Positions 13,506 through 34,951 of a stretch of 42,760 nucleotides of DNA are shown piece by piece. This DNA comes from a virus. Location: the IMG/VR virus record IMGVR_UViG_3300043408_000022, positions 1 to 42,760 of that record; one strand, 5' to 3'. A model generated the notes under the pieces. The model was given only the letters and a program-made list of their open reading frames with translations, was not told the DNA's origin and did no database searches. Position numbers and translations under genes: made by a program. Position 1 is the stretch's first letter. The number at the start of each line of letters is the position of its first letter.

Positions 13506-13665
13506 GATCTTCTCCTTCTAGGGCTAACTTACCTCTAAAGATAGCACAAAGTATCCCATAAAGGGTTACTGTTGACATCAACTTACCGCATGTACGAGAC
13601 GTACGGGAAGTACGGATTAACTTACTAGAGGTTCGTGAAAAAACACACGAATTACCCCTTATACC
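13506..13665. promoter_or_regulatory. Divergent intergenic control region
   Basis: This AT-richer gap lies between the leftward late operon and the first rightward cassette. It holds GTTGA-CA-TCAAC (13571-13582), three GTACG pentamers spaced exactly 9 bases apart (13592, 13601, 13610), and TTCGTG/CACGAA (13632-13637 and 13646-13651), all of which look like protein-binding or RNA-hairpin sites. A possible extended -10 on the minus strand (TGGGATACT, about 13554-13546) could drive the late operon, but no convincing -35 is present. Confidence 0.45.
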
Positions 13666-13666
13666 C

Positions 13667-13758
13667 AAGCAAATGGACAAAGCGCGAACAACATCATTGG
13701 GGTTTAGACTTGGGGGGTCGGGACATCTGTCTCGATACAAACTAATGATTGGGTAATC
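13667..13758 (+). promoter_or_regulatory. Cassette element A upstream of the DprA-like gene
   Basis: First of five related elements. It begins AAGCAAATGGAC (13667-13678). Before the start codon come a hairpin (TCGGGA 13718-13723 with TCTCGA 13730-13735) and GATTGGGTAATC directly before ATG. The TGGAC core lies 85 bases from the ATG. There is no Shine-Dalgarno sequence, unlike most genes in this genome. It may be a promoter plus a structured leader. Confidence 0.55.
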
Positions 13759-14433
13759 ATGTCTACATTTGAATCGGTCACTATCGAACGTGACGACGAA
13801 GCACACTTCCCTGTTGGGTTGCTTGACCTGCCAGCCTCGGCAGTCCCTGAGCGTTTGCACGCGATTGGAAATCTGGAACTGTTGTCTGACCTGTCAACCT
13901 CCGGGCTTGTTGTCACAGGTAGCCGTGCGTCTACCGGATACGGTGAGCACATCACAATGCAAATCGTGTCTGACATCTTGCACGATAACCCCAGCACAAT
14001 CATCGCTTCGGGCGGGGCGTACGGTATCGAGGGCATGGCAATCCGTGCGGCTCTCGCTTGTGAGTCTCAGCCTGTCGTGTGGTTGTCTGGAGGCATTGGG
14101 GTTTTCTACCCCTCTGGCCACGACGTTTTGTTCCGTCGCGTGATTGAGGCGGGCGGTGTGGTTGTGTCTGCTCACGATGACAACACACCACCAACACGAG
14201 AGCAGTTCGCACAGCGTAACGAGTTCTTGGGTCTGGCAACCTACACTACGCTCGTGACTGAGGCGGGCTACCGTTCCGGTTCGCTCGTGGTTGCTGATGC
14301 GGCTCATGCATTTGGTCGTCATGTGTATGCGGTTCCCGGTCCAATCACCAGCGCCGCGTCTGCCGGATGCCACCACCTTATCCGTCAAGGCATTGCACAG
14401 ATTGCAACCACATCAGTGGATGTGATCCACTAA
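13759..14433 (+). CDS. DprA/Smf-like protein
   Basis: A 224-residue single-domain homologue of DprA, which in bacteria binds ssDNA and loads RecA. The Rossmann-like core is well preserved: GSRAST-YG (54-61), SGGAYGIEG (84-92), YPSGH (117-121), RNEFLG (153-158), TEAGYRSGSL (167-176), VPGP (192-195) and GCHHLI (203-208). It lacks the N-terminal SAM-like and C-terminal winged-helix domains of full bacterial DprA. It stands alone between its own leader element and a strong terminator, apart from the recombination genes at 22-24 kb. Phage roles could include recombination, replication restart or counter-defence; these are inferences. Confidence 0.88.
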   Translation: MSTFESVTIERDDEAHFPVGLLDLPASAVPERLHAIGNLELLSDLSTSGLVVTGSRASTGYGEHITMQIVSDILHDNPSTIIASGGAYGIEGMAIRAALACESQPVVWLSGGIGVFYPSGHDVLFRRVIEAGGVVVSAHDDNTPPTREQFAQRNEFLGLATYTTLVTEAGYRSGSLVVADAAHAFGRHVYAVPGPITSAASAGCHHLIRQGIAQIATTSVDVIH

Positions 14434-14435
14434 CT

Positions 14436-14467
14436 GAGAGGGGGCGCAAGCCCCCTCTCTTTTTTCT
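14436..14467 (+). terminator. Terminator of cassette A
   Basis: A perfect 10-bp stem (GAGAGGGGGC at 14436-14445 with its complement at 14450-14459) around GCAA is followed by TTTTTTCTTTC. It starts two bases after the stop codon, which makes the DprA-like gene monocistronic. Confidence 0.95.
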
Positions 14468-14474
14468 TTCTTCT

Positions 14475-14567
14475 AAGGAATCAAGTGGACTATCGCGCTG
14501 TCTGCACGCTTGTGCTTGAATTGACTTGTCGCACCGGGGAAGTGCCCCAGCGACAGATTGGGTAATC
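14475..14567 (+). promoter_or_regulatory. Cassette element B
   Basis: AAGGAATCAAGTGGACTATC (14475-14494) begins just after the terminator T-tract. A strong hairpin follows (TGTCGC 14527-14532 with GCGACA 14550-14555, plus an inner GGGG/CCCC stem). GATTGGGTAATC then abuts the ATG, identical to element A at that position. The TGGAC core to ATG distance is 82 bases. Confidence 0.6.
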
Positions 14568-14909
14568 ATGTCTGGATACACCGCGGACTTCACCGCACAG
14601 GAGAACGAGCCAAACGATGCGCTGGTCGCACAGCGTCTTTACGAGGCTATGAAGCGTAACGAGCACACGATGCGCCTGATGGCGGAGCTTCTCATTAGCG
14701 TCGCAGACGCTGAGGCCGACATGGGCTCTGTGTCTGGCACCATGTTCGAGGCTCTGGCCGACGTTCACGACTCGTTCATCGACGTTATGCCCGGCATCGC
14801 TCACGATGCTCGTGTGGCTCGCAAGAACATGCGTCAGACCGAATGGGGCGATGACCTTGGTTATCTCCACGAGTGGGACCTCGAACTCGATGAAGAGTGG
14901 CAGGAATAG
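14568..14909 (+). CDS. Acidic protein of cassette B, unknown function
   Basis: A 113-residue protein; the upstream in-frame TTG at 14526 is rejected because it falls inside the conserved leader hairpin. It is helical and acidic, beginning MSGYTADFTAQENEPNDALV, with a central helix (RNEHTMRLMAELLISVADAE) and a tail rich in Asp, Glu and Trp (WDLELDEEWQE). Acidic, single-gene cassettes with their own signals are often host-takeover or anti-defence genes (some act as DNA mimics), but nothing in the sequence proves that here. No family recognised. Confidence 0.8.
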   Translation: MSGYTADFTAQENEPNDALVAQRLYEAMKRNEHTMRLMAELLISVADAEADMGSVSGTMFEALADVHDSFIDVMPGIAHDARVARKNMRQTEWGDDLGYLHEWDLELDEEWQE

Positions 14910-14920
14910 TTCACCCAATC

Positions 14921-14952
14921 GGGGGCTCCTTCGGGAGCCCCCACCTTTCTTA
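14921..14952 (+). terminator. Terminator of cassette B
   Basis: A perfect 9-bp stem (GGGGGCTCC at 14921-14929 with GGAGCCCCC at 14934-14942) around TTCG is followed by ACCTTTCTTAA. It ends the transcript about a dozen bases after the stop codon. Confidence 0.93.
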
Positions 14953-14958
14953 ACTACT

Positions 14959-15046
14959 AAGGAAGCAAGTGGACTATCCTGCTTGCTTGCTATTTGCGCT
15001 AACTTTATTACTAGCCGGTTCAACCCCCGGCAGATTGGGAAATATC
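14959..15046 (+). promoter_or_regulatory. Cassette element C
   Basis: AAGGAAGCAAGTGGACTATC (14959-14978) matches element B with one difference. It is followed by a GCCGG/CCGGC hairpin (15014-15018 and 15027-15031), then AGATTGGGAAATATC against the ATG. Core-to-ATG spacing is 77 bases. A weak TTGCTT-17-TATTAC promoter-like pair falls within it. Confidence 0.6.
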
Positions 15047-15331
15047 ATGTCACGTCAGAAATTTGTCTTCCCTGAGGAAGACGTACGCCTTGAGGTTGTA
15101 TTCAACCGCGAGACGATTACCGTTGAGGGCTATGAGAATGTCATCTCATTGTCTGAGGATGAGGAAGACGGCACGTACCTTACTCACCTAGAGCACTATT
15201 CCGGTTACACCCTGTCCGAATGTCTCTGCAAGGCACTTATCGACATGGATCGGGCATCTGATTGGTCAGAGGCTATTTACATGGTTGAAGAAATTGGCGT
15301 GCCTTACGTATCGGACGGGGAGGAAGACTAA
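15047..15331 (+). CDS. Acidic protein of cassette C, unknown function
   Basis: A 94-residue protein beginning MSRQKFVFPEEDVRLEVVFN. The frame is open from 14969, but that extension runs through the conserved element, so ATG 15047 is used. The N-terminal half looks like beta strands (RETITVEGYENVISLSEDEE), and the C-terminal half is helical (YTLSECLCKALIDMDRASDW) with an acidic end (SDGEED). No family recognised. It is coupled to the next gene through TAATG. Confidence 0.78.
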   Translation: MSRQKFVFPEEDVRLEVVFNRETITVEGYENVISLSEDEEDGTYLTHLEHYSGYTLSECLCKALIDMDRASDWSEAIYMVEEIGVPYVSDGEED

Positions 15332-15561
15332 TGTCGCGCTCTGGCCTGCCCGGTACCTTATTTATCGAACTAGCCCGTCCCGGTGACACTATCGGGGCGG
15401 TGCTAGGCACGGATGCCATTTACTATGTCGACGGACGTTACGGACGTGAACGTGTCTTGAACGAAATATATGAGCGTTATAGCGACTATTTCAAGCACGG
15501 CTTTACCTTGCTAGGGTACACGCGCCCCGGTGACTACACAGGTAAGATACACAAACTTTAA
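15331..15561 (+). CDS. Second protein of cassette C, unknown function
   Basis: A 76-residue protein whose ATG overlaps the preceding stop. It begins MSRSGLPGTLFIELARPGDT and has a helix around residues 40-55 (RVLNEIYERYSDYFKHGFTL), with a basic C-terminus (GKIHKL). No motif recognised. Sharing one leader and one terminator with the acidic 94-residue protein suggests the two act together, but that is only context. Confidence 0.75.
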   Translation: MSRSGLPGTLFIELARPGDTIGAVLGTDAIYYVDGRYGRERVLNEIYERYSDYFKHGFTLLGYTRPGDYTGKIHKL

Positions 15562-15570
15562 CCCCTTACA

Positions 15571-15612
15571 GATACCCCCGCGCCCCCTAGGGCGACGGGG
15601 GTATCTTTATGC
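15571..15612 (+). terminator. Terminator of cassette C
   Basis: GATACCCCCG (15571-15580) pairs with CGGGGGTATC (15596-15605), enclosing an inner CGCCC/GGGCG stem, and is followed by TTTAT. Confidence 0.9.
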
Positions 15613-15635
15613 TTTGTCGAGCTCAAAAGCGCTCT

Positions 15636-15697
15636 CAGGAAGCAAGTGGACGATCTGCACGCATGCTTGGACTAAAAGTCTAGACTATTGGTCTAGC
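15636..15697 (+). promoter_or_regulatory. Cassette element D (no obvious gene)
   Basis: CAGGAAGCAAGTGGACGATC (15636-15655) matches elements B and C, followed by inverted repeats (GACT-AAA-AGTC at 15670-15680 and AGAC-TATTG-GTCT at 15683-15695). No ATG with the GATTGGG leader is found at the expected distance; element E begins instead. Confidence 0.5.
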
Positions 15698-15702
15698 GCC
15701 CT

Positions 15703-15735
15703 CAGGAAGCAAAGAGTGGACAAACGCGCTACGCG
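15703..15735 (+). promoter_or_regulatory. Cassette element E (no obvious gene)
   Basis: CAGGAAGCAAAGAGTGGAC (15703-15721) then AAACGCGC, which resembles element A (TGGACAAAGCGCG). An ATG lies about 83 bases after its TGGAC core (15800), but the frame there runs through a terminator-like hairpin and looks decayed. Confidence 0.45.
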
Positions 15736-15771
15736 CTTAGAACTTCGCGATCTCTGACGAATGACCGGTAT

Positions 15772-15797
15772 TTGCGAGATCTTGCGAGATCTTGCGG
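15772..15797. repeat. Tandem 10-bp repeats
   Basis: TTGCGAGATC occurs twice head to tail (15772-15781, 15782-15791), followed by a partial third unit (TTGCGG). Related CGCGATC words lie on both sides. Iteron-like in form; function unknown. Confidence 0.6.
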
Positions 15798-15837
15798 ACA
15801 TGATCCGCGATCACGTGGCTAGCGCCGGGCATGACAA

Positions 15838-15872
15838 AAGCCCCCGGCTTATCTGCTGGGGGCTTATCTTTA
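15838..15872 (+). terminator. Terminator-like hairpin
   Basis: AAGCCCCC (15838-15845) pairs with GGGGGCTT (15858-15865) around a 12-base loop and is followed by ATCTTTAT. It may end a transcript started at elements D or E. Confidence 0.7.
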
Positions 15873-15877
15873 TATCT

Positions 15878-15919
15878 ATTATTACGTGCTACCCTCCCTA
15901 GAGGGTAGCACGTAATAAT
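15878..15919. repeat. 18-bp perfect inverted repeat
   Basis: The arm ATTATTACGTGCTACCCT (15878-15895) and its exact complement (15902-15919) flank CCCTAG. It is much longer than needed for a terminator. It could be a two-way terminator insulating the early promoter, a protein-binding dyad or part of an origin. Confidence 0.75.
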
Positions 15920-15933
15920 TACTAGGGAAATAC

Positions 15934-16016
15934 AACTGTTTTTCAATACTGCAAGATCCGGAGCTAGACCCCAGGTGATTAGGGATAAAAAAATAAATAA
16001 ACTGTATTTCAATACT
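15934..16016. repeat. 17-bp direct repeat pair next to the early promoter
   Basis: AACTGTTTTTCAATACT (15934-15950) and AACTGTATTTCAATACT (16000-16016) differ at one base and start 66 bases apart. The second copy runs straight into the -35 palindrome. Likely binding sites for one regulator, or a promoter duplication with a decayed left copy. Confidence 0.6.
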
Positions 16017-16043
16017 TGACAGTACTGTCAAATACTGTATTGT
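16016..16043 (+). promoter_or_regulatory. Early rightward promoter with operator palindrome
   Basis: TTGACA (16016-16021) is a consensus -35 box, with TATTGT as a moderate -10 (16038-16043) after a 16-base spacer. The -35 is the left half of the perfect palindrome TTGACAGTACTGTCAA (16016-16031), so a dimeric repressor bound there would block the polymerase. It lies about 70 bases before the first gene of the early operon. Confidence 0.7.
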
Positions 16044-18196: not shown

Positions 18197-18281
18197 GAAA
18201 CTTCTCTGGGTAGCGGTAGCTATCGGACTTTACCTGATCATTCACCAGATGATCTTCATCAACTTTATCAAGGGGTACTAA
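18189..18281 (+). CDS. 30-residue single-pass membrane peptide
   Basis: MAEKLLWVAVAIGLYLIIHQ is followed by MIFINFIKGY, giving one hydrophobic span over nearly the whole length. It overlaps the previous gene by 8 bases, and its stop overlaps the next start (TAATG), so it fits the coupled-gene chain. Early membrane peptides in phages can block superinfection or adjust the host membrane; that is inference. Confidence 0.62.
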   Translation: MAEKLLWVAVAIGLYLIIHQMIFINFIKGY

Positions 18282-18745
18282 TGGCAACACACGTAAGTAA
18301 TAAGACAGTAGTAGCAGTAAGAGAGCTACTGCGCGTAGCTGGCACAGCTATGACAACTAAAGAGATTGCACTTGCGCTAGGTAAGAGCTACGAGGCCGTA
18401 CGTCAAGCGATAGTACAGGCCGAGCTGGTCACGATCGGACACGGCAACCCTAAGCATTATGCGCTAGGGGAACTCGACAATGAGCGCCGAGTGCAGAGCA
18501 AGAATGACGGGCTGGACTACACCGTGACCGGCACCACCAGCTCACAGATCAGTGCTGAATGGAACAAGAACCGTGAGGCTATTGTGTCGCTTCTTGCTAA
18601 GAGCGAGATCGCGCCGGGTGTGAGCCCCGGTGAGCTAGCGTTACGCTTTGGTACCGCTTCTGGCGTGCTGGCACAGCTCGCTTATGATCTCTACAATGTG
18701 GCAGACAAGCCTGATTGGTATGAGATCCTCACAGAGACAGAGTAA
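18281..18745 (+). CDS. Winged-helix-type DNA-binding protein
   Basis: A 154-residue protein. Residues ~8-60 read as a winged helix: helix (VVAVRELLRVAGTAM), recognition region (TTKEIALALGKSYEAVRQAI), then a wing (AELVTIGHGNPKHYAL). A second helical domain at ~95-150 (NREAIVSLLAKSEIAPGVSP, GELALRFG) could be another winged helix. It is a reasonable candidate for the factor that binds the palindrome over the early promoter, but no direct evidence links them. Confidence 0.75.
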   Translation: MATHVSNKTVVAVRELLRVAGTAMTTKEIALALGKSYEAVRQAIVQAELVTIGHGNPKHYALGELDNERRVQSKNDGLDYTVTGTTSSQISAEWNKNREAIVSLLAKSEIAPGVSPGELALRFGTASGVLAQLAYDLYNVADKPDWYEILTETE

Positions 18746-29606: not shown

Positions 29607-29936
29607 AGCTACTCTACGAAGCTTCCCAGCTTGGCCAGTCAGACGGCTCTCATGGTCTGCCAACGTACCAAACACAGTACTGGAATCACGCTTATAGGTT
29701 TCAATGTGATCATCAAGCTTGTCATCGACATTAGCCACAAGGCTTGCGCTGGTGTCCAACTTGGCAAACACCAAAGCAAACTTCGCATCTAAGTCATCAC
29801 GCAAATGTTGCGGGTGTGAGTTAGTGATCTCTTGCTTAGTCTTCTTGATCTCTTTATTCAAGATCCAACCGACAACAAGTACAGCCACAGGGCCGATAAC
29901 GAACTGGATCAAAATAGTCCATACTTGCTCAGACAT
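29598..29936 (-). CDS. DUF2746-like membrane protein (possible holin or tail-associated)
   Basis: A 112-residue protein with an N-terminal membrane span (~residues 5-26, WTILIQFVIGPVAVLVVGWI), then the conserved-looking NSHPQHLRDDLD and a coiled coil. This arrangement matches DUF2746-type proteins of actinobacterial phages. It is the last gene of the late operon, coupled to the giant protein through TAATG. It might be a holin/spanin-like lysis factor or a membrane partner for DNA entry; neither is shown. Confidence 0.75.
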   Translation of the reverse strand: MSEQVWTILIQFVIGPVAVLVVGWILNKEIKKTKQEITNSHPQHLRDDLDAKFALVFAKLDTSASLVANVDDKLDDHIETYKRDSSTVFGTLADHESRLTGQAGKLRRVAKK

Positions 29937-32900
29937 TAGAATCCTGCACGTTGTACTCCTTCGCGGTTCCTCTTCTCAATCTCTGCAAGATCGATAAGGT
30001 TTTGTTTTGAGATGTTTCCTAGGCCTAGACCTGTCATCCAGTTTACAAAAGAAATAACCTTATCGCTGTCTTCCTTCGTACCCTTTTCAACAGCACGCTG
30101 AATATCTGGGCCTTGTCCTGACAAGATACCTGCAATAGATCCGGTAGTTGAGTAGCCAGAGATGTTAGAAACGTAGTTGATACCGGGAATGTTGGAATCA
30201 AGGTACTCAGAAACATCCTTGATCTTCGATCCAGTATCAAGCTTTGTTCCAGTAGCGAGCTCGACAGGCAAGCGAAGGATGGGCGAAATCATGCCAAGCA
30301 TCGCCTTTACTGGGTCTGTACCGAAGTCATTACTTACGTCGATGTTGGCAATACCGGGATTGATGGTGTAGTACTTACCATCGAACTGAGCAATAGGGCC
30401 GGTTGCTTGCTTAGTAATAAACTCAGGGAACAGCTGATCGTCAGGGAAAGGATCCGACAAAGAGTTAGGATCTACACCCATAGCTACAGCCATGTTGTAC
30501 GAAGCCTTAGGGAATACCATTGCACGGCCCGGACGGATCGCAGCCGACACAACAATCGCAGGCAAAGCGCCACGCAACCAGCTGTAGAACGGAATGATCG
30601 GACGCAGATACTTAGCCTCGAACGGGGTAAGCATAGAGCTGTCGGGGTGGTAACGCTTGACCTGCTTAGCCATAGCCTCAAACATTGCTTCCTTAGAAGC
30701 AAACTTAGGATCGAACTTGCCCGGCTTCTGCATCTTGTACATGTACTGAAGAGCGTGCTGGATACGGGCGTAGTGGTCACGGCCTTCTGAGATGGTACCT
30801 AGGAACTCTTCAGCCTTGCCTCCACGGAAGGAAACCTTGTCGAGTCCACGCTTCAAAGCGCCCTGAGCTGTCGCTTCAATATCTTCAGTGATGAAGAACT
30901 TAGGCAACAGACCACGCTTGTTGAGCTCTTCATAGAACTCGTCCATACGGACCTCGCCATACTTACCGTTGCTGATAACGTCAGCGTTGGTAGGAAGCTT
31001 GTCTACACCTTCCTTACGGAGAGCCGCAAGCAGGTCCATGTCAGTGTAGTTACGGCGACCGTACGCCATAACCTTGAACGCATCGACACCAGCCTTGTGA
31101 GCGTAACGTACGCCCTCAGCCATGAACGTAAGCGAAGCATCACCGATCATGTTACGAATGTGGTGACCGGGGCGAGGAAGTGTAATCAAGTACTTCCAAG
31201 TGTCCTGCAACGGGAACAGCGTCTTCTGAAGCCACTCACCTACAGGACCGCCAGCTACACGAGCCTCAGAAACAAACTCAGACATGCGCTGGAACTGGTC
31301 AGCCAGATCTTCACGAACAAACGTCTTAGAAGGAATGAAAGGTCCAAGCTTTCCGCCGTACTCGTCAAGGCGTACATATCCGGGAGTCTTCTTGTTTACG
31401 ACAGCTCCGGGAATCTCACGGAACTTAGACAACGCACCGTGCGCCAAAGCGCCATCAGTGTTAGCCATGATCAAAGCAGCCTGCCAACGACCCAAGAAAT
31501 CGATAGGATCCTTGATGTCCATCTGAGTCCACTCACGAGACATCGCGTCCCACATGTCAGTGGCTTCGCCGTCTTTGACCATCTTGTTGAACTTTTCAAG
31601 ATCAAAGATAGCTTCACGATCACGGCCAATAATCTCGTGCAGCTTTACCTGTCGAAGATAATCAGCAAATACGTCAGGTCCGAGACCGCCGATGCTCTGA
31701 AGGTCGCTCAGAGAGTTTGCCTTAGTGTGGTCAAACAGTTCAGAGATGACGTTCTCAAGATCTGCACGAAGAACCTCGTCCTCAGGAGAAGATTTCATGC
31801 CACGCTGAATCTCGTTGAAAACCTTAGAAATCTTAGACACACCAAAACCGTCAACAAGACCAGAGTGTTTCTTGTTCAAGATGTTTAGACGACGAGTAAA
31901 GTTACCGCGAAGTTCCTTGAAACCGACACTCATGTCGTGGATAACTTCGCTGATCGTCTCCATACCGTGATGACGGCTAAACATCGTCAGCAGCGGGTTC
32001 ATGCGGCGAATAACGTCGCCCATAACAGCGCCATGCGCCTTAGTCGATGCAGCTTCCTCAGCAGTCTCACGACCAAACTCAGAGTTGCTTTGGTACGCTT
32101 CATCAGAAACCTTAGCTGCCTCGTCAGCAGGAGCTTTCAGATCTTCCTGAACAGCCTTCTGCGTCTTAGCCGCCTTCTCCGCAGCAGGAGCCTTAGGAGC
32201 TTCCTTCTCAGCAGCTTGAGCAGTCTTACGCACACGAGTAGCTGCTTTGCCAGAAACCTCAGCACCAAATGGCAGACGTGTTGTCACACCGATCTTAGCT
32301 GCGATCTTCGACAGGTCCATAGCCCACTCAGACTTAGCGGCGTTGTCGATCTCCTTGACGTAATTATCAAGAAGTTTCAAAGCATCCGCAACCTTAAGAG
32401 GATCGTTCATAAAAGCAACAAGCTTAGTAATTACTTCGTTGCTAAGATCACTAGCTTCTTGATTGAAACGCTTTAGGTAGTTAGCTGCGTTGCTTGCGTT
32501 AGTAGCGCGGAGAGTATCTTTACCTTCACGCAGAACAGCAATCGTACGCTCTACGATCTTGTCAGCAGGCACGGTCTGGATACGGTTCTTAGTCTTAGCT
32601 CGCTCAGCCTTGTTAGCAAAGTGGTACTTACCTCCGCTAACAAAAGCGTTGTACACGCCTTCACCTTCAGACTTGCGGAGAATCGCTGTCAGCTCAGCGT
32701 CAGTAACATCATCCCCACGACGAACAATCTCAGCAACAGCGTCATAAATGTTTGTCGTAACAGTACGAGTACCAGCATTGAACAGAACCATGTTGACCAA
32801 ATCAGAGTCAAGCTCGTTCAAAATAGAGACAGCCTGAGTCATCGACAACTGAACACGATTAGCGCCAACGCCCATCCACAGAGGGATACCCATCTGGTCA

Positions 32901-34951
32901 AGCATTGCTTCAGTCATAGCCATACGGCGCATCACGTACTGCTTTACGTAATCAGCACGCTCACGGCCATACAGCTTACGGCCAAATTCATTCTTAGCAG
33001 AGTCAGCCAGCTCAGCAGCCTTGTTAGTAATAAGCTTCGTAACAGTCCACGCGTCACGAGTGTTGAACTCACGCTCACGCTTACCGATAGTGCCAGCCTT
33101 AGTCTTCTTCAAAGCTACGCCGGTAGCACTACGGCCAGCCTTATAGCCAGTAACGTCAGTAAACTTCTTCAGTACTGGAGCAATAAGCTTGGCAAGGTCC
33201 ATAGCTTCTTTGTCATTGAATCCAGCCAGACGGAAACCGTCCTCAGCAGTGAGGCCATTATCGACAGCATCCGCAATACGTGCGCCCTTAGCAGTACCGA
33301 CAGTAGAAACAGCCTGTCGGCGTGCAAGGTTAGTTCCAGCTACGTCAATGCCCAGCAGATCCATAACGGCACGGTCAATAGCCTGAATAGACTTGGCATC
33401 GACAAAGTTGTTCAAAGAACGCTGGTTGTTGAGAAGCTTTAACAGGCTCTGTACAGCCCCCTCAAAGGACCCAGCAGATCCGCCAGCACGTCGCTTCAAG
33501 TTAGCCGTCAACTGCTTACCAAGAAGCTTAGAAATCTTAGCGCCCTCAGCAGTCTCCAAAGTAGAACGGAAACGAGCACCAAAAGGATCAATCTTTAGTT
33601 CAGCCTTAGGAGTGACGCTTGTGGGTTGAGTAGCATACTTAGCCTGCATCGCAGCAAGCTCGTCAGGCATGTTCTTACTAACCTGACCAACAACATCTGC
33701 AATCTCAGAAGGAGCCGCCCCGCCACGAACCATCTTGGCGATGTCACCAGCAGTGATGTATTTCTCACCGATCTTGGCACCGACCCATGTCGGATCCATC
33801 ATTGCCTTGTACTCAAGGAACTGCCCGGCAGTAATACCGTCAGTATTGATCAGGCGGTTAGCCTCGTCAACACGGCCACCAGTCTTGCCATAAAGATACT
33901 GGAATCGGGCAAAGTGATCGTTTACAGCTTGCTTAGCCTTGAGGCCTGTAGCTGCCATAGCAGATGACAAAGGCTGCTCAATGTTGTCGATCTTTACAAG
34001 AACGTCCTCAGCGCCGTTAGCTACATTGTCAAGGTAAGAAGTCTTGTAGCCCTTCAAAGTCTTTACAGAGGCAGGAGCGGCAGCCTTAGCGACCTTCTCA
34101 GCAACCTTAGTGGGGGCCTCGTCAATAGGCTTGATCAAAGACTTGAGAGTCTGCTGAAGTTTCTTGTTCATAGGAGCCGCAGCGATCTGCTCGTCCACAG
34201 AAGCCGGAATAACAGGAGCCGGAGCCTCTTGCTTCACAGGCTTCGGGGCCTTAGCTGGAACACTTACCGATTCCTGTAGATCGCTAACTACCTGAGCCTC
34301 CGCCGGAGGGACAACTGTTGGAGCCTTGCCCTCGGTCTTAGCTACATCTGCCTGCTTAGAGATAGCCTCCGCCGCATCAATAACCTCAGGAGCAATCTCA
34401 CCAGTAGCCTTAGCCCCCTTAGCAGCTGCCAAACCTAGCTTTGTACTTGCTTTAGTAGCAACGGCAGCGATACCAGCCAAAGGAATATACGTAAGCGGGT
34501 CAAGAGCTACGTCACCAGCAAAACCGATAACGCCCTTAGCGACAGGATCTAAGTTGTCTTTAACGTTGACATACCCAGAGCGAGTATTACCCACAACATC
34601 CGTAACCTGCTCAATCAAGTCGCTAGTCATAGGCTTGTCATCTTTATTCGTAGAAAGAAGTCCACGAATAGGGGCAGAAATAGTCTTACCTACCTCGGCA
34701 GCTACGTCATAAGGCTCACCAGTCTGTGCCTTAGCCGCCCACTCAGCAGCTGACTGAATAGTCTCAGTAACTCCGTAAAGAGGACGCGAAGCAATATCTA
34801 TAGCTGTCGACAAAAAGTCTTCAGGCGTACCCTTTTTAGTTGCAGGCGCGTTAGCAATAGGCGTAAAAGTTTGCTTAGCCGGAGCGTTAGCAACGCCATA
34901 CTTATTCTTAGCTTCAGCTAAGTATTGAGAGAACGGTTTACGAGAGGCCAT
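29936..34951 (-). CDS. Giant putative internal virion / DNA-ejection protein
   Basis: A 1,671-residue protein, the largest in the genome, coupled downstream of two other probable inner-virion proteins. Residues 1-200 include PEDFLSTAIDIASRPLYGVT and a hydrophobic helix region (DPLTYIPLAGIAAVATKAST). Residues ~900-975 are a low-complexity Ala/Lys/Glu linker. The C-terminal ~400 residues contain many helices, including FPLQDTWKYLITLPRPGHHI and YLRPIIPFYSWLRGALPAIV. Podoviruses carry such large proteins in the head and eject them to form a DNA channel through the envelope. I see no lysozyme or transglycosylase motif. Confidence 0.75.
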   Translation of the reverse strand: MASRKPFSQYLAEAKNKYGVANAPAKQTFTPIANAPATKKGTPEDFLSTAIDIASRPLYGVTETIQSAAEWAAKAQTGEPYDVAAEVGKTISAPIRGLLSTNKDDKPMTSDLIEQVTDVVGNTRSGYVNVKDNLDPVAKGVIGFAGDVALDPLTYIPLAGIAAVATKASTKLGLAAAKGAKATGEIAPEVIDAAEAISKQADVAKTEGKAPTVVPPAEAQVVSDLQESVSVPAKAPKPVKQEAPAPVIPASVDEQIAAAPMNKKLQQTLKSLIKPIDEAPTKVAEKVAKAAAPASVKTLKGYKTSYLDNVANGAEDVLVKIDNIEQPLSSAMAATGLKAKQAVNDHFARFQYLYGKTGGRVDEANRLINTDGITAGQFLEYKAMMDPTWVGAKIGEKYITAGDIAKMVRGGAAPSEIADVVGQVSKNMPDELAAMQAKYATQPTSVTPKAELKIDPFGARFRSTLETAEGAKISKLLGKQLTANLKRRAGGSAGSFEGAVQSLLKLLNNQRSLNNFVDAKSIQAIDRAVMDLLGIDVAGTNLARRQAVSTVGTAKGARIADAVDNGLTAEDGFRLAGFNDKEAMDLAKLIAPVLKKFTDVTGYKAGRSATGVALKKTKAGTIGKREREFNTRDAWTVTKLITNKAAELADSAKNEFGRKLYGRERADYVKQYVMRRMAMTEAMLDQMGIPLWMGVGANRVQLSMTQAVSILNELDSDLVNMVLFNAGTRTVTTNIYDAVAEIVRRGDDVTDAELTAILRKSEGEGVYNAFVSGGKYHFANKAERAKTKNRIQTVPADKIVERTIAVLREGKDTLRATNASNAANYLKRFNQEASDLSNEVITKLVAFMNDPLKVADALKLLDNYVKEIDNAAKSEWAMDLSKIAAKIGVTTRLPFGAEVSGKAATRVRKTAQAAEKEAPKAPAAEKAAKTQKAVQEDLKAPADEAAKVSDEAYQSNSEFGRETAEEAASTKAHGAVMGDVIRRMNPLLTMFSRHHGMETISEVIHDMSVGFKELRGNFTRRLNILNKKHSGLVDGFGVSKISKVFNEIQRGMKSSPEDEVLRADLENVISELFDHTKANSLSDLQSIGGLGPDVFADYLRQVKLHEIIGRDREAIFDLEKFNKMVKDGEATDMWDAMSREWTQMDIKDPIDFLGRWQAALIMANTDGALAHGALSKFREIPGAVVNKKTPGYVRLDEYGGKLGPFIPSKTFVREDLADQFQRMSEFVSEARVAGGPVGEWLQKTLFPLQDTWKYLITLPRPGHHIRNMIGDASLTFMAEGVRYAHKAGVDAFKVMAYGRRNYTDMDLLAALRKEGVDKLPTNADVISNGKYGEVRMDEFYEELNKRGLLPKFFITEDIEATAQGALKRGLDKVSFRGGKAEEFLGTISEGRDHYARIQHALQYMYKMQKPGKFDPKFASKEAMFEAMAKQVKRYHPDSSMLTPFEAKYLRPIIPFYSWLRGALPAIVVSAAIRPGRAMVFPKASYNMAVAMGVDPNSLSDPFPDDQLFPEFITKQATGPIAQFDGKYYTINPGIANIDVSNDFGTDPVKAMLGMISPILRLPVELATGTKLDTGSKIKDVSEYLDSNIPGINYVSNISGYSTTGSIAGILSGQGPDIQRAVEKGTKEDSDKVISFVNWMTGLGLGNISKQNLIDLAEIEKRNREGVQRAGF

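What the first reader, a model, noticed from the sequence alone, without database searches (positions are those of the whole stretch)
13667..15612. Three tandem self-contained gene cassettes with a shared upstream element, hairpin and non-SD start leader
Each unit has: (1) an AAGGAAGCAAGTGGAC-like element beginning right after the previous terminator (for A, after the control region); (2) a stable hairpin with a different sequence in each unit (13718-13735, 14527-14555, 15014-15031); (3) GATTGGGTAATC (GATTGGGAAATATC in C) directly against the ATG with no Shine-Dalgarno; (4) one or two genes; (5) a strong intrinsic terminator. Core-to-ATG distances are 85, 82 and 77 bases. The genes differ (DprA-like; two acidic unknown proteins; a partner), so the signals, not the proteins, are conserved. 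This resembles the start-associated sequences known in mycobacteriophages, but with a different motif. It may be a modular platform for swapping in accessory genes.
Basis: partly seen in the sequence, partly recalled or inferred. Interest (0 to 1): 0.78.

Follow-up and report, generated by a model that had tools for sequence, protein, structure and literature searches.

The report
Genome-end sites repeated before gene cassettes
A bacterial virus carries a short DNA signal in front of each gene in a small cluster; cultured relatives show that this signal also marks the physical end of the virus genome, so the cluster is most likely the repeated end of the chromosome, where genes are swapped in and out behind copies of the end site.

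Summary
The repeated element is real and conserved, but it is not a start-associated sequence. The window is a complete 42.8-kb genome of an actinophage lineage related to Microbacterium phage Shocker and Arthrobacter phage Jasmine. About 14 related viral contigs carry the same one-strand array with different genes. In isolates with recorded ends, the direct terminal repeat (DTR) starts inside the first copy, one base before TGGA (Shocker, Jasmine, Adat; Casserole nine bases on). The other copies occur only inside the DTR, the last 136-279 nt before its end. In 11 arrays, the window's included, the last copy lies about 180-360 nt before a long inverted repeat; the window's (15878-15919, 19 perfect pairs) is its longest. 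I infer that the cassettes fill a DTR of about 2.2 kb (13673 to ~15899) and that the core is a cleavage or nicking site reused before every cassette. What the internal copies do is unproven; promoter or activator sites are the main rival. GATTGGGTAATCATG is private to this genome; leader hairpins are significant only as a class.

The parts
13645..13700 (+). Unit-A site: ACCCCTTATA, degenerate core CCAAGCAA|ATGGAC (13665-13678), ACAACATCATTG; predicted DTR start between 13672 and 13673
   Evidence: Aligned with unit A of relatives; strict pattern CAARTGGA-N5-20-ACAACAT occurs once in the window and once in Shocker, where it straddles the recorded DTR start
13759..14433 (+). Cassette A gene, DprA-like protein, 224 aa
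   Evidence: Pfam PF02481, E 2.4e-42
13747..13761 (+). GATTGGGTAATCATG at start of A (also 14556-14570 at B)
   Evidence: Exact, only two in the window; not conserved in relatives
14436..14459 (+). Intrinsic terminator after A
14477..14490 (+). Core before B, GGAATCAA|GTGGAC
14568..14909 (+). Cassette B gene, 113 aa, unknown
   Evidence: No PHROG or Pfam match
14921..14942 (+). Intrinsic terminator after B
14961..14974 (+). Core before C, GGAAGCAA|GTGGAC
15047..15331 (+). Cassette C first gene, 94 aa, unknown
15331..15561 (+). Cassette C second gene, 76 aa, unknown; start overlaps the stop of the first
15571..15605 (+). Terminator-like hairpin after C (GATACCCCCG...CGGGGGTATC)
   Evidence: Read from the sequence; inner part 15584-15601 found by scan
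15638..15651 (+). Gene-less core D, GGAAGCAA|GTGGAC
15705..15721 (+). Gene-less core E with AGA inserted at the cut point: GGAAGCAA-AGA-GTGGAC
15838..15865 (+). Terminator-like hairpin after the gene-less copies
15878..15919 (.). 19-bp perfect inverted repeat, loop CCTA; predicted far end of the DTR near 15899
   Evidence: Longest perfect inverted repeat (loop up to 15) in the window; same place as inverted repeats in ten relatives' arrays

Best explanation
The array (about 13673 to 15899) is the direct terminal repeat (DTR) of this phage and carries its end-proximal genes. GGAANCAA|RTGGAC is a two-half-site DNA recognition and cleavage core. In the first copy, which has extra flanks (ACCCCTTATA and ACAACATCATTG), it is where a phage nuclease (terminase or site-specific nickase) makes the genome end; strand-displacement synthesis from there towards the long inverted repeat would copy the DTR, as proposed for T7-type ends. 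The same core is repeated on the same strand in front of each later cassette and once more near the far end. With a terminator before it and a promoter after it, each copy would lie in an untranscribed gap. I think the internal copies are bound, and probably nicked, by the same enzyme, like the localized nicks of phages T5, tf and phiKMV. Shown: the repeat, its conservation and strand bias, the exchange of genes, and its coincidence with recorded DTR starts in cultured relatives. Inferred: the DTR of this particular genome, the enzyme, nicking of internal copies, and displacement synthesis.
For: The core is repeated on one strand in the same region of the window and about 14 related contigs; reversed-pattern control 0-1 per genome. 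Shocker's 484-bp DTR starts at GGTCAA|ATGGAATC..TTACAACATG, Jasmine's and Adat's at ATACTGG|CTGGAAC..GCAACATG, all one base before TGGA; TGGA[AC] starts at only 0.2-0.3% of early-strand positions. The strict unit-A pattern is unique in the window and in Shocker, 0 in shuffles. Shocker has an exact core inside its DTR, 136 nt from its end. In Jasmine, Casserole and Adat the group's own variant lies at the DTR start and at two internal DTR sites and nowhere else, so end and internal copies changed together. In 11 arrays the last core lies about 180-360 nt before a long inverted repeat, and in the Jasmine group the DTR ends inside an inverted repeat. In four relatives and copy E the last core carries an insertion exactly at the cut point. 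Known nick sites are likewise short, asymmetric and on one strand: tf TACT/RTGMC (PMC3517423).
Against: The physical ends of this genome are unknown. The recorded ends come from database records; Casserole's is nine bases off, and Jasmine, Casserole and Adat are one lineage. No nick has been mapped in any of these phages and no nickase gene was identified. Shocker's DTR ends at a short palindrome inside a gene, not at a long inverted repeat. Spacing from the core to ACAACATC varies between genomes. Extended -10 motifs at a fixed distance after the core in three genomes speak for a transcription role. A terminator directly upstream is clear for only part of the copies under a strict rule (16 of 36).
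Confidence: 0.5

Rival explanations
1. The core is a phage-specific promoter or activator site. Each cassette is its own transcription unit, and the core with the following ACTGNCTGCYTGC block binds a phage factor that brings host RNA polymerase to a weak -10. The genome end coincides with the first promoter because end formation is tied to it.
For: Copies lie between terminators and genes. TGnTAnnnT clusters about 50 nt after the core, 5 of 6 occurrences, not matched in 1000 shuffles. Leader hairpins as a class imply transcription starting before them. A candidate regulator with a weak Sigma70_r4 match exists at 18281-18745, with homologues in three relatives.
Against: The -10 cluster comes from only three genomes (L269, L270, L271), and no sigma-70-like site is found at the window's cores. 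It does not explain why the recorded genome ends cut through the core, or why the last copy precedes no gene.
Confidence: 0.3
2. The cores are repressor or stoperator-type operators of a temperate phage, placed in intergenic gaps to block transcription.
For: Asymmetric 14-bp site in one orientation relative to transcription, in intergenic gaps.
Against: Confined to the array, not spread over the genome. The window proteins scanned gave no integrase or immunity repressor, only weak HTH matches. It does not explain the genome end.
Confidence: 0.05
3. The core is the ribosome-binding site and start codon (RTG GAC) of a short leader peptide that ends at TAATC-ATG and is coupled to the gene.
For: In A and B the frame from RTGGAC is open and stops two bases before the gene's ATG; G/A at the first base of RTG fits a start codon.
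Against: In C the frame runs into the gene. In relatives the frame is not kept: ATG GAC TAA, 9, 11, 16, 21 or 28 codons, or fusion. Gene-less copies exist.
Confidence: 0.02

Closest known systems
Localized single-strand nick sites of phages tf (TACT/RTGMC), T5 (R/GCGCRGG) and phiKMV-like phages (CGACxxxxxCCTA/CTCCGG), PMC3517423
   Same: Short asymmetric site, repeated on one DNA strand only, with variants shared within a genome; phages with direct terminal repeats.
   Different: Here the copies are confined to the terminal-repeat region, stand before genes, and one copy coincides with the genome end in relatives. In tf the nicks are spread over the genome and the proposed terminase core (GATATCcc) is a different sequence. 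Nicks are not shown here.
Terminal repeats of Arthrobacter phage Jasmine and Microbacterium phage Shocker
   Same: Same lineage and anatomy: first core at the DTR start, further cores inside, last core 136-279 nt before the end, accessory gene inside (Lsr2-like in Jasmine).
   Different: Window array is longer, with more cores and other genes (DprA-like). The Jasmine description that was read (PMC5513430) notes the repeat and its Lsr2-like gene but not the repeated core.
T7-type DTR end formation (general knowledge)
   Same: One DTR copy per concatemer junction has to be duplicated by synthesis from a cut or nick; an inverted repeat at one boundary.
   Different: To my knowledge T7 does not repeat its end site in front of genes inside the terminal repeat.
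Mycobacteriophage start-associated sequences, SAS/ESAS (PMC3203893)
   Same: Short asymmetric repeat, mostly one orientation, before genes of different families, with species-specific variants.
   Different: SAS lies at the start codon in 11-19 copies across the genome; this core lies tens of bases or more away, only in one region, and also without a gene.

Membership tests
Mycobacteriophage SAS/ESAS | 13-bp consensus GGGATAGGAGCCC at translation starts | tested here: not met
   GGATAGGAGCCC and GATAGGAGCCC absent from both strands; the window's own core lies 86-94 nt before the ATG
Mycobacteriophage SAS/ESAS | Copies spread through the genome | tested here: not met
   Exact core copies only at 14476-15651; same clustering in relatives
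DTR terminus site of the Shocker/Jasmine lineage | Site straddles the recorded start of the direct terminal repeat | tested here: met
   Shocker, Jasmine, Adat in one register, Casserole nine bases off; tested in relatives, not in the window itself
DTR terminus site of the Shocker/Jasmine lineage | Window DNA itself has a direct terminal repeat from 13673 to about 15899 | not testable with these tools
   The record has only a 127-bp terminal overlap; needs read depth or end mapping
DTR terminus site of the Shocker/Jasmine lineage | Inverted repeat at the far boundary | tested here: inconclusive
   Met in the Jasmine group and an inverted repeat is present in 11 arrays; Shocker has only a short palindrome
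Localized nick (sci) sites | Consensus copies on one strand only | tested here: met
   Array copies all on the early-gene strand
Localized nick (sci) sites | Single-strand break in virion DNA at the consensus | not testable with these tools
   Needs virion DNA
Localized nick (sci) sites | tf consensus TACTRTGMC itself | tested here: not met
   No match on the + strand, one on the - strand of the window; the consensus differs between phage groups
Sigma-70 promoters | -35 and -10 hexamers at 16-18 nt | tested here: not met
   None at the cores; only 15494 (-) and 16016 (+) in the region, no more than in shuffles
Leader peptide | Conserved reading frame from RTGGAC | tested here: not met

The most novel reading that the evidence does not exclude
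Every copy in the array is a working break site of the enzyme that makes the genome end. The phage would then carry its terminus-forming site in front of each gene of its terminal repeat, and breaks there would let gene-plus-terminator cassettes be lost, duplicated or captured at the chromosome end: a packaging-driven cassette exchange system.
Probability: 0.2. Interest if true: 0.85.

Novelty: new variant of a known kind. Interest (0 to 1): 0.58.

Why it matters
If right, it gives a sequence rule for recognising the terminal repeat of this phage group in assembled contigs whose physical ends are unknown: the first core marks the start, and the last core lies some 140-360 nt before the end. 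It also links genome-end formation, the unexplained localized nicks of T5, tf and phiKMV-type phages, and the placing of accessory genes in one small module that exists in cultured phages (Shocker, Jasmine, Adat), so it can be tested directly.

Tried and rejected
Leader peptide starting at RTGGAC: attractive in A and B, rejected because the frame is not kept in relatives. Canonical promoters at the cores: none. Rfam, tRNA and tmRNA: none. DNA relatives of the array among deposited phages: none by blastn. The DprA gene as bait found no relative in viral contigs; DNA polymerase was the useful bait. Collection scans with 14-15 fixed bases gave mostly what look like chance hits; longer patterns found the same phages plus unrelated single hits. 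Two bacterial-genome hits look unrelated. Hairpin alignments A2 and A3 were misaligned and are not used as covariation evidence; by hand, stems such as GUCGGG/CCCGAC, GUCAGG/CCUGAC and GUCGGC/GCCGAC recur before the Shine-Dalgarno, but I picked them because they pair. A virion RNA polymerase reading the cores: the 1671-aa protein has no Pfam or PDB sequence match, so undecided. Contig ends of relatives did not fall at the core. Searches for papers on phiC31-type early promoters and T7 concatemer junctions gave nothing usable. A paper search on Shocker found none.

Full report
What the window is. The record is a 42,760-bp virus record (G000) whose two ends share 127 identical bases, which I read as an assembly overlap of a complete genome. 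It encodes a terminase, a P22-like portal and an SU10-like capsid protein, and DNA polymerase, helicases and an exonuclease. The nearest cultured phages are Microbacterium phage Shocker (45-51% protein identity), then the Arthrobacter Jasmine group and Cellulosimicrobium phage DS1. Jasmine is a podovirus with a 1330-bp direct terminal repeat (DTR) that contains an Lsr2-like gene (PMC5513430). In the window, structural genes run left from 13.5 kb, early genes run right from about 16.0 kb, and the finding lies between them.

Check of the observation. The core AGGAANCAAGTGGAC is exact at 14476, 14960 and 15637. Unit A carries a degenerate copy (CCAAGCAAATGGAC), and a fifth copy at 15705 has three inserted bases. 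GATTGGGTAATCATG is exact in A and B only, and A and B have no useful Shine-Dalgarno. The three window leaders do not fold better than shuffled sequence.

Relatives. DNA polymerase as bait found about 30 related contigs. Core copies were found in G002, G004, G005, G006, G008 and G009 and in G010, G011, G013, G021, G024, G025 and G026; several of the contigs without one are short fragments. The array copies lie on one strand, and the reversed pattern gives 0-1 match per genome. The core is nearly invariant, GGAANCAARTGGAC, with the caveat that sites were collected by that pattern. First copies are followed by ACAACATC, later ones mostly by ACTGNCTGCYTGC. Perfect GC-rich stems end within 60 nt upstream of 16 of 36 later copies, against 7.8% of random positions; stems with one mismatch cover many others. 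The leaders as a class hold RNA hairpins: 21 leaders, mean z -0.89, combined -4.1. In most relatives a GAAAGG Shine-Dalgarno stands where this genome has GATTGGG, so point (3) of the finding is local.

Genes behind the cores. The unit-A gene belongs to one family in G004, G005, G008, G010, G024, G025 and G026, with a second related copy in G008; the window has a DprA-like gene instead. One pair of later cassettes is homologous between G005 and G010 and one is identical between G006 and G010; the rest matched nothing in the set. G011 carries an SSB-like and a clamp-like gene.

The genome end. Shocker holds an exact core at 45084 on the minus strand, present again in its other DTR copy at 137. 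Its 484-bp DTR begins, read on the early-gene strand, at GGTCAA|ATGGAATC..TTACAACATGATT, inside a unit-A site. The pattern CAARTGGA-N5-20-ACAACAT occurs once in the window and once in Shocker and never in shuffles. Jasmine and Adat begin their DTRs at ATACTGG|CTGGAAC..GCAACATG, in the same register, one base before TGGA; Casserole's is recorded nine bases further on. TGGA[AC] starts at 0.2-0.3% of early-strand positions, so agreement in two separate lineages is unlikely to be chance. DS1, a circular record, has GAGTGGAATC..GACAACATC at its divergence point. In Jasmine, Casserole and Adat the group's own version of the site, GATANATACYG[GC]NTGGAA, occurs at three places only: across the DTR start; after a terminator-like hairpin or gap before the Lsr2 gene; and after that gene with no gene following, 277-279 nt before the DTR end. 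The end copy and the internal copies therefore change together, which points to one factor that reads them all.

The other end. In Jasmine, Casserole and Adat the DTR ends inside an inverted repeat (CCCCTCTACC..GGTAGAGGGG). In 11 arrays, the window's included, a long inverted repeat follows the last core at about 180-360 nt, and several share the loop GCTCCTTGATGGAGC. The window's is 19 perfect pairs, the longest in the genome. In L229, L231, L268 and L232 the last core has one extra base, and copy E of the window three, exactly between CAA and RTGGAC. L231 and L268 are near-identical there, so these are three or four independent cases. This suggests two half-sites around the cut and perhaps an uncut variant at the far end. 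I predict the window's DTR at about 13673 to 15899.

Mechanism. Shown: a conserved one-strand array, a terminal copy at the recorded genome start in cultured relatives, joint change of end and internal copies, and exchange of the genes between them. Inferred: the core is a cleavage or nicking site; displacement synthesis from the break towards the inverted repeat copies the DTR; internal copies are bound or nicked by the same enzyme. The nearest known sites are the localized nicks of tf (TACT/RTGMC, 14 on one strand), T5 and phiKMV-like phages, whose function is unknown (PMC3517423). The main rival is a promoter or activator site: extended -10 motifs cluster about 50 nt after the core in L269, L270 and L271. 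Both may hold: a terminator before and a promoter after each core would keep the core free of transcription.

Verdict. What is added is that the module most likely is the chromosome end and that the repeated signal is the end site.

Noticed in passing
window 15638-15870: Two gene-less cores are followed by about 120-190 nt of apparently noncoding sequence ending in a terminator-like hairpin; a small RNA is possible.
   Followed up: partly
L230 4552-4582, L229 5347-5377, L269 4849-4893 (reverse-complemented coordinates) and others: Inverted repeats after the array share the loop sequence GCTCCTTGATGGAGC in many relatives; the window, L233, L234 and L270 have different ones.
   Followed up: partly
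window 18281-18745: 154-aa protein with a weak Sigma70_r4/HTH match; homologues at 37-40% identity in G002, G009 and G011; Shocker gp57 (HTH) lies at a similar place but shows no clear similarity.
   Followed up: partly
L269 (G011 array): The cassettes of this relative encode an SSB-like protein and a sliding-clamp-like protein.
   Followed up: yes
window 16016-16043: Sigma-70-like promoter TTGACA-16-TATTGT just beyond the inverted repeat, possibly the start of the early operon.
   Followed up: no
L278 (Shocker) 45410-43170, minus strand: CCTGTAAAGG recurs several times before genes in and near the Shocker terminal repeat.
   Followed up: no
window 29936-34951 (-): 1671-aa protein with only an unknown-function PHROG match and no Pfam or PDB match; Jasmine and Shocker have a giant gene at the same place.
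   Followed up: partly
window 13673-13756 and 14485-14565: Open frames from RTGGAC to a stop two bases before the ATG in A and B look like leader peptides but are not conserved.
   Followed up: yes
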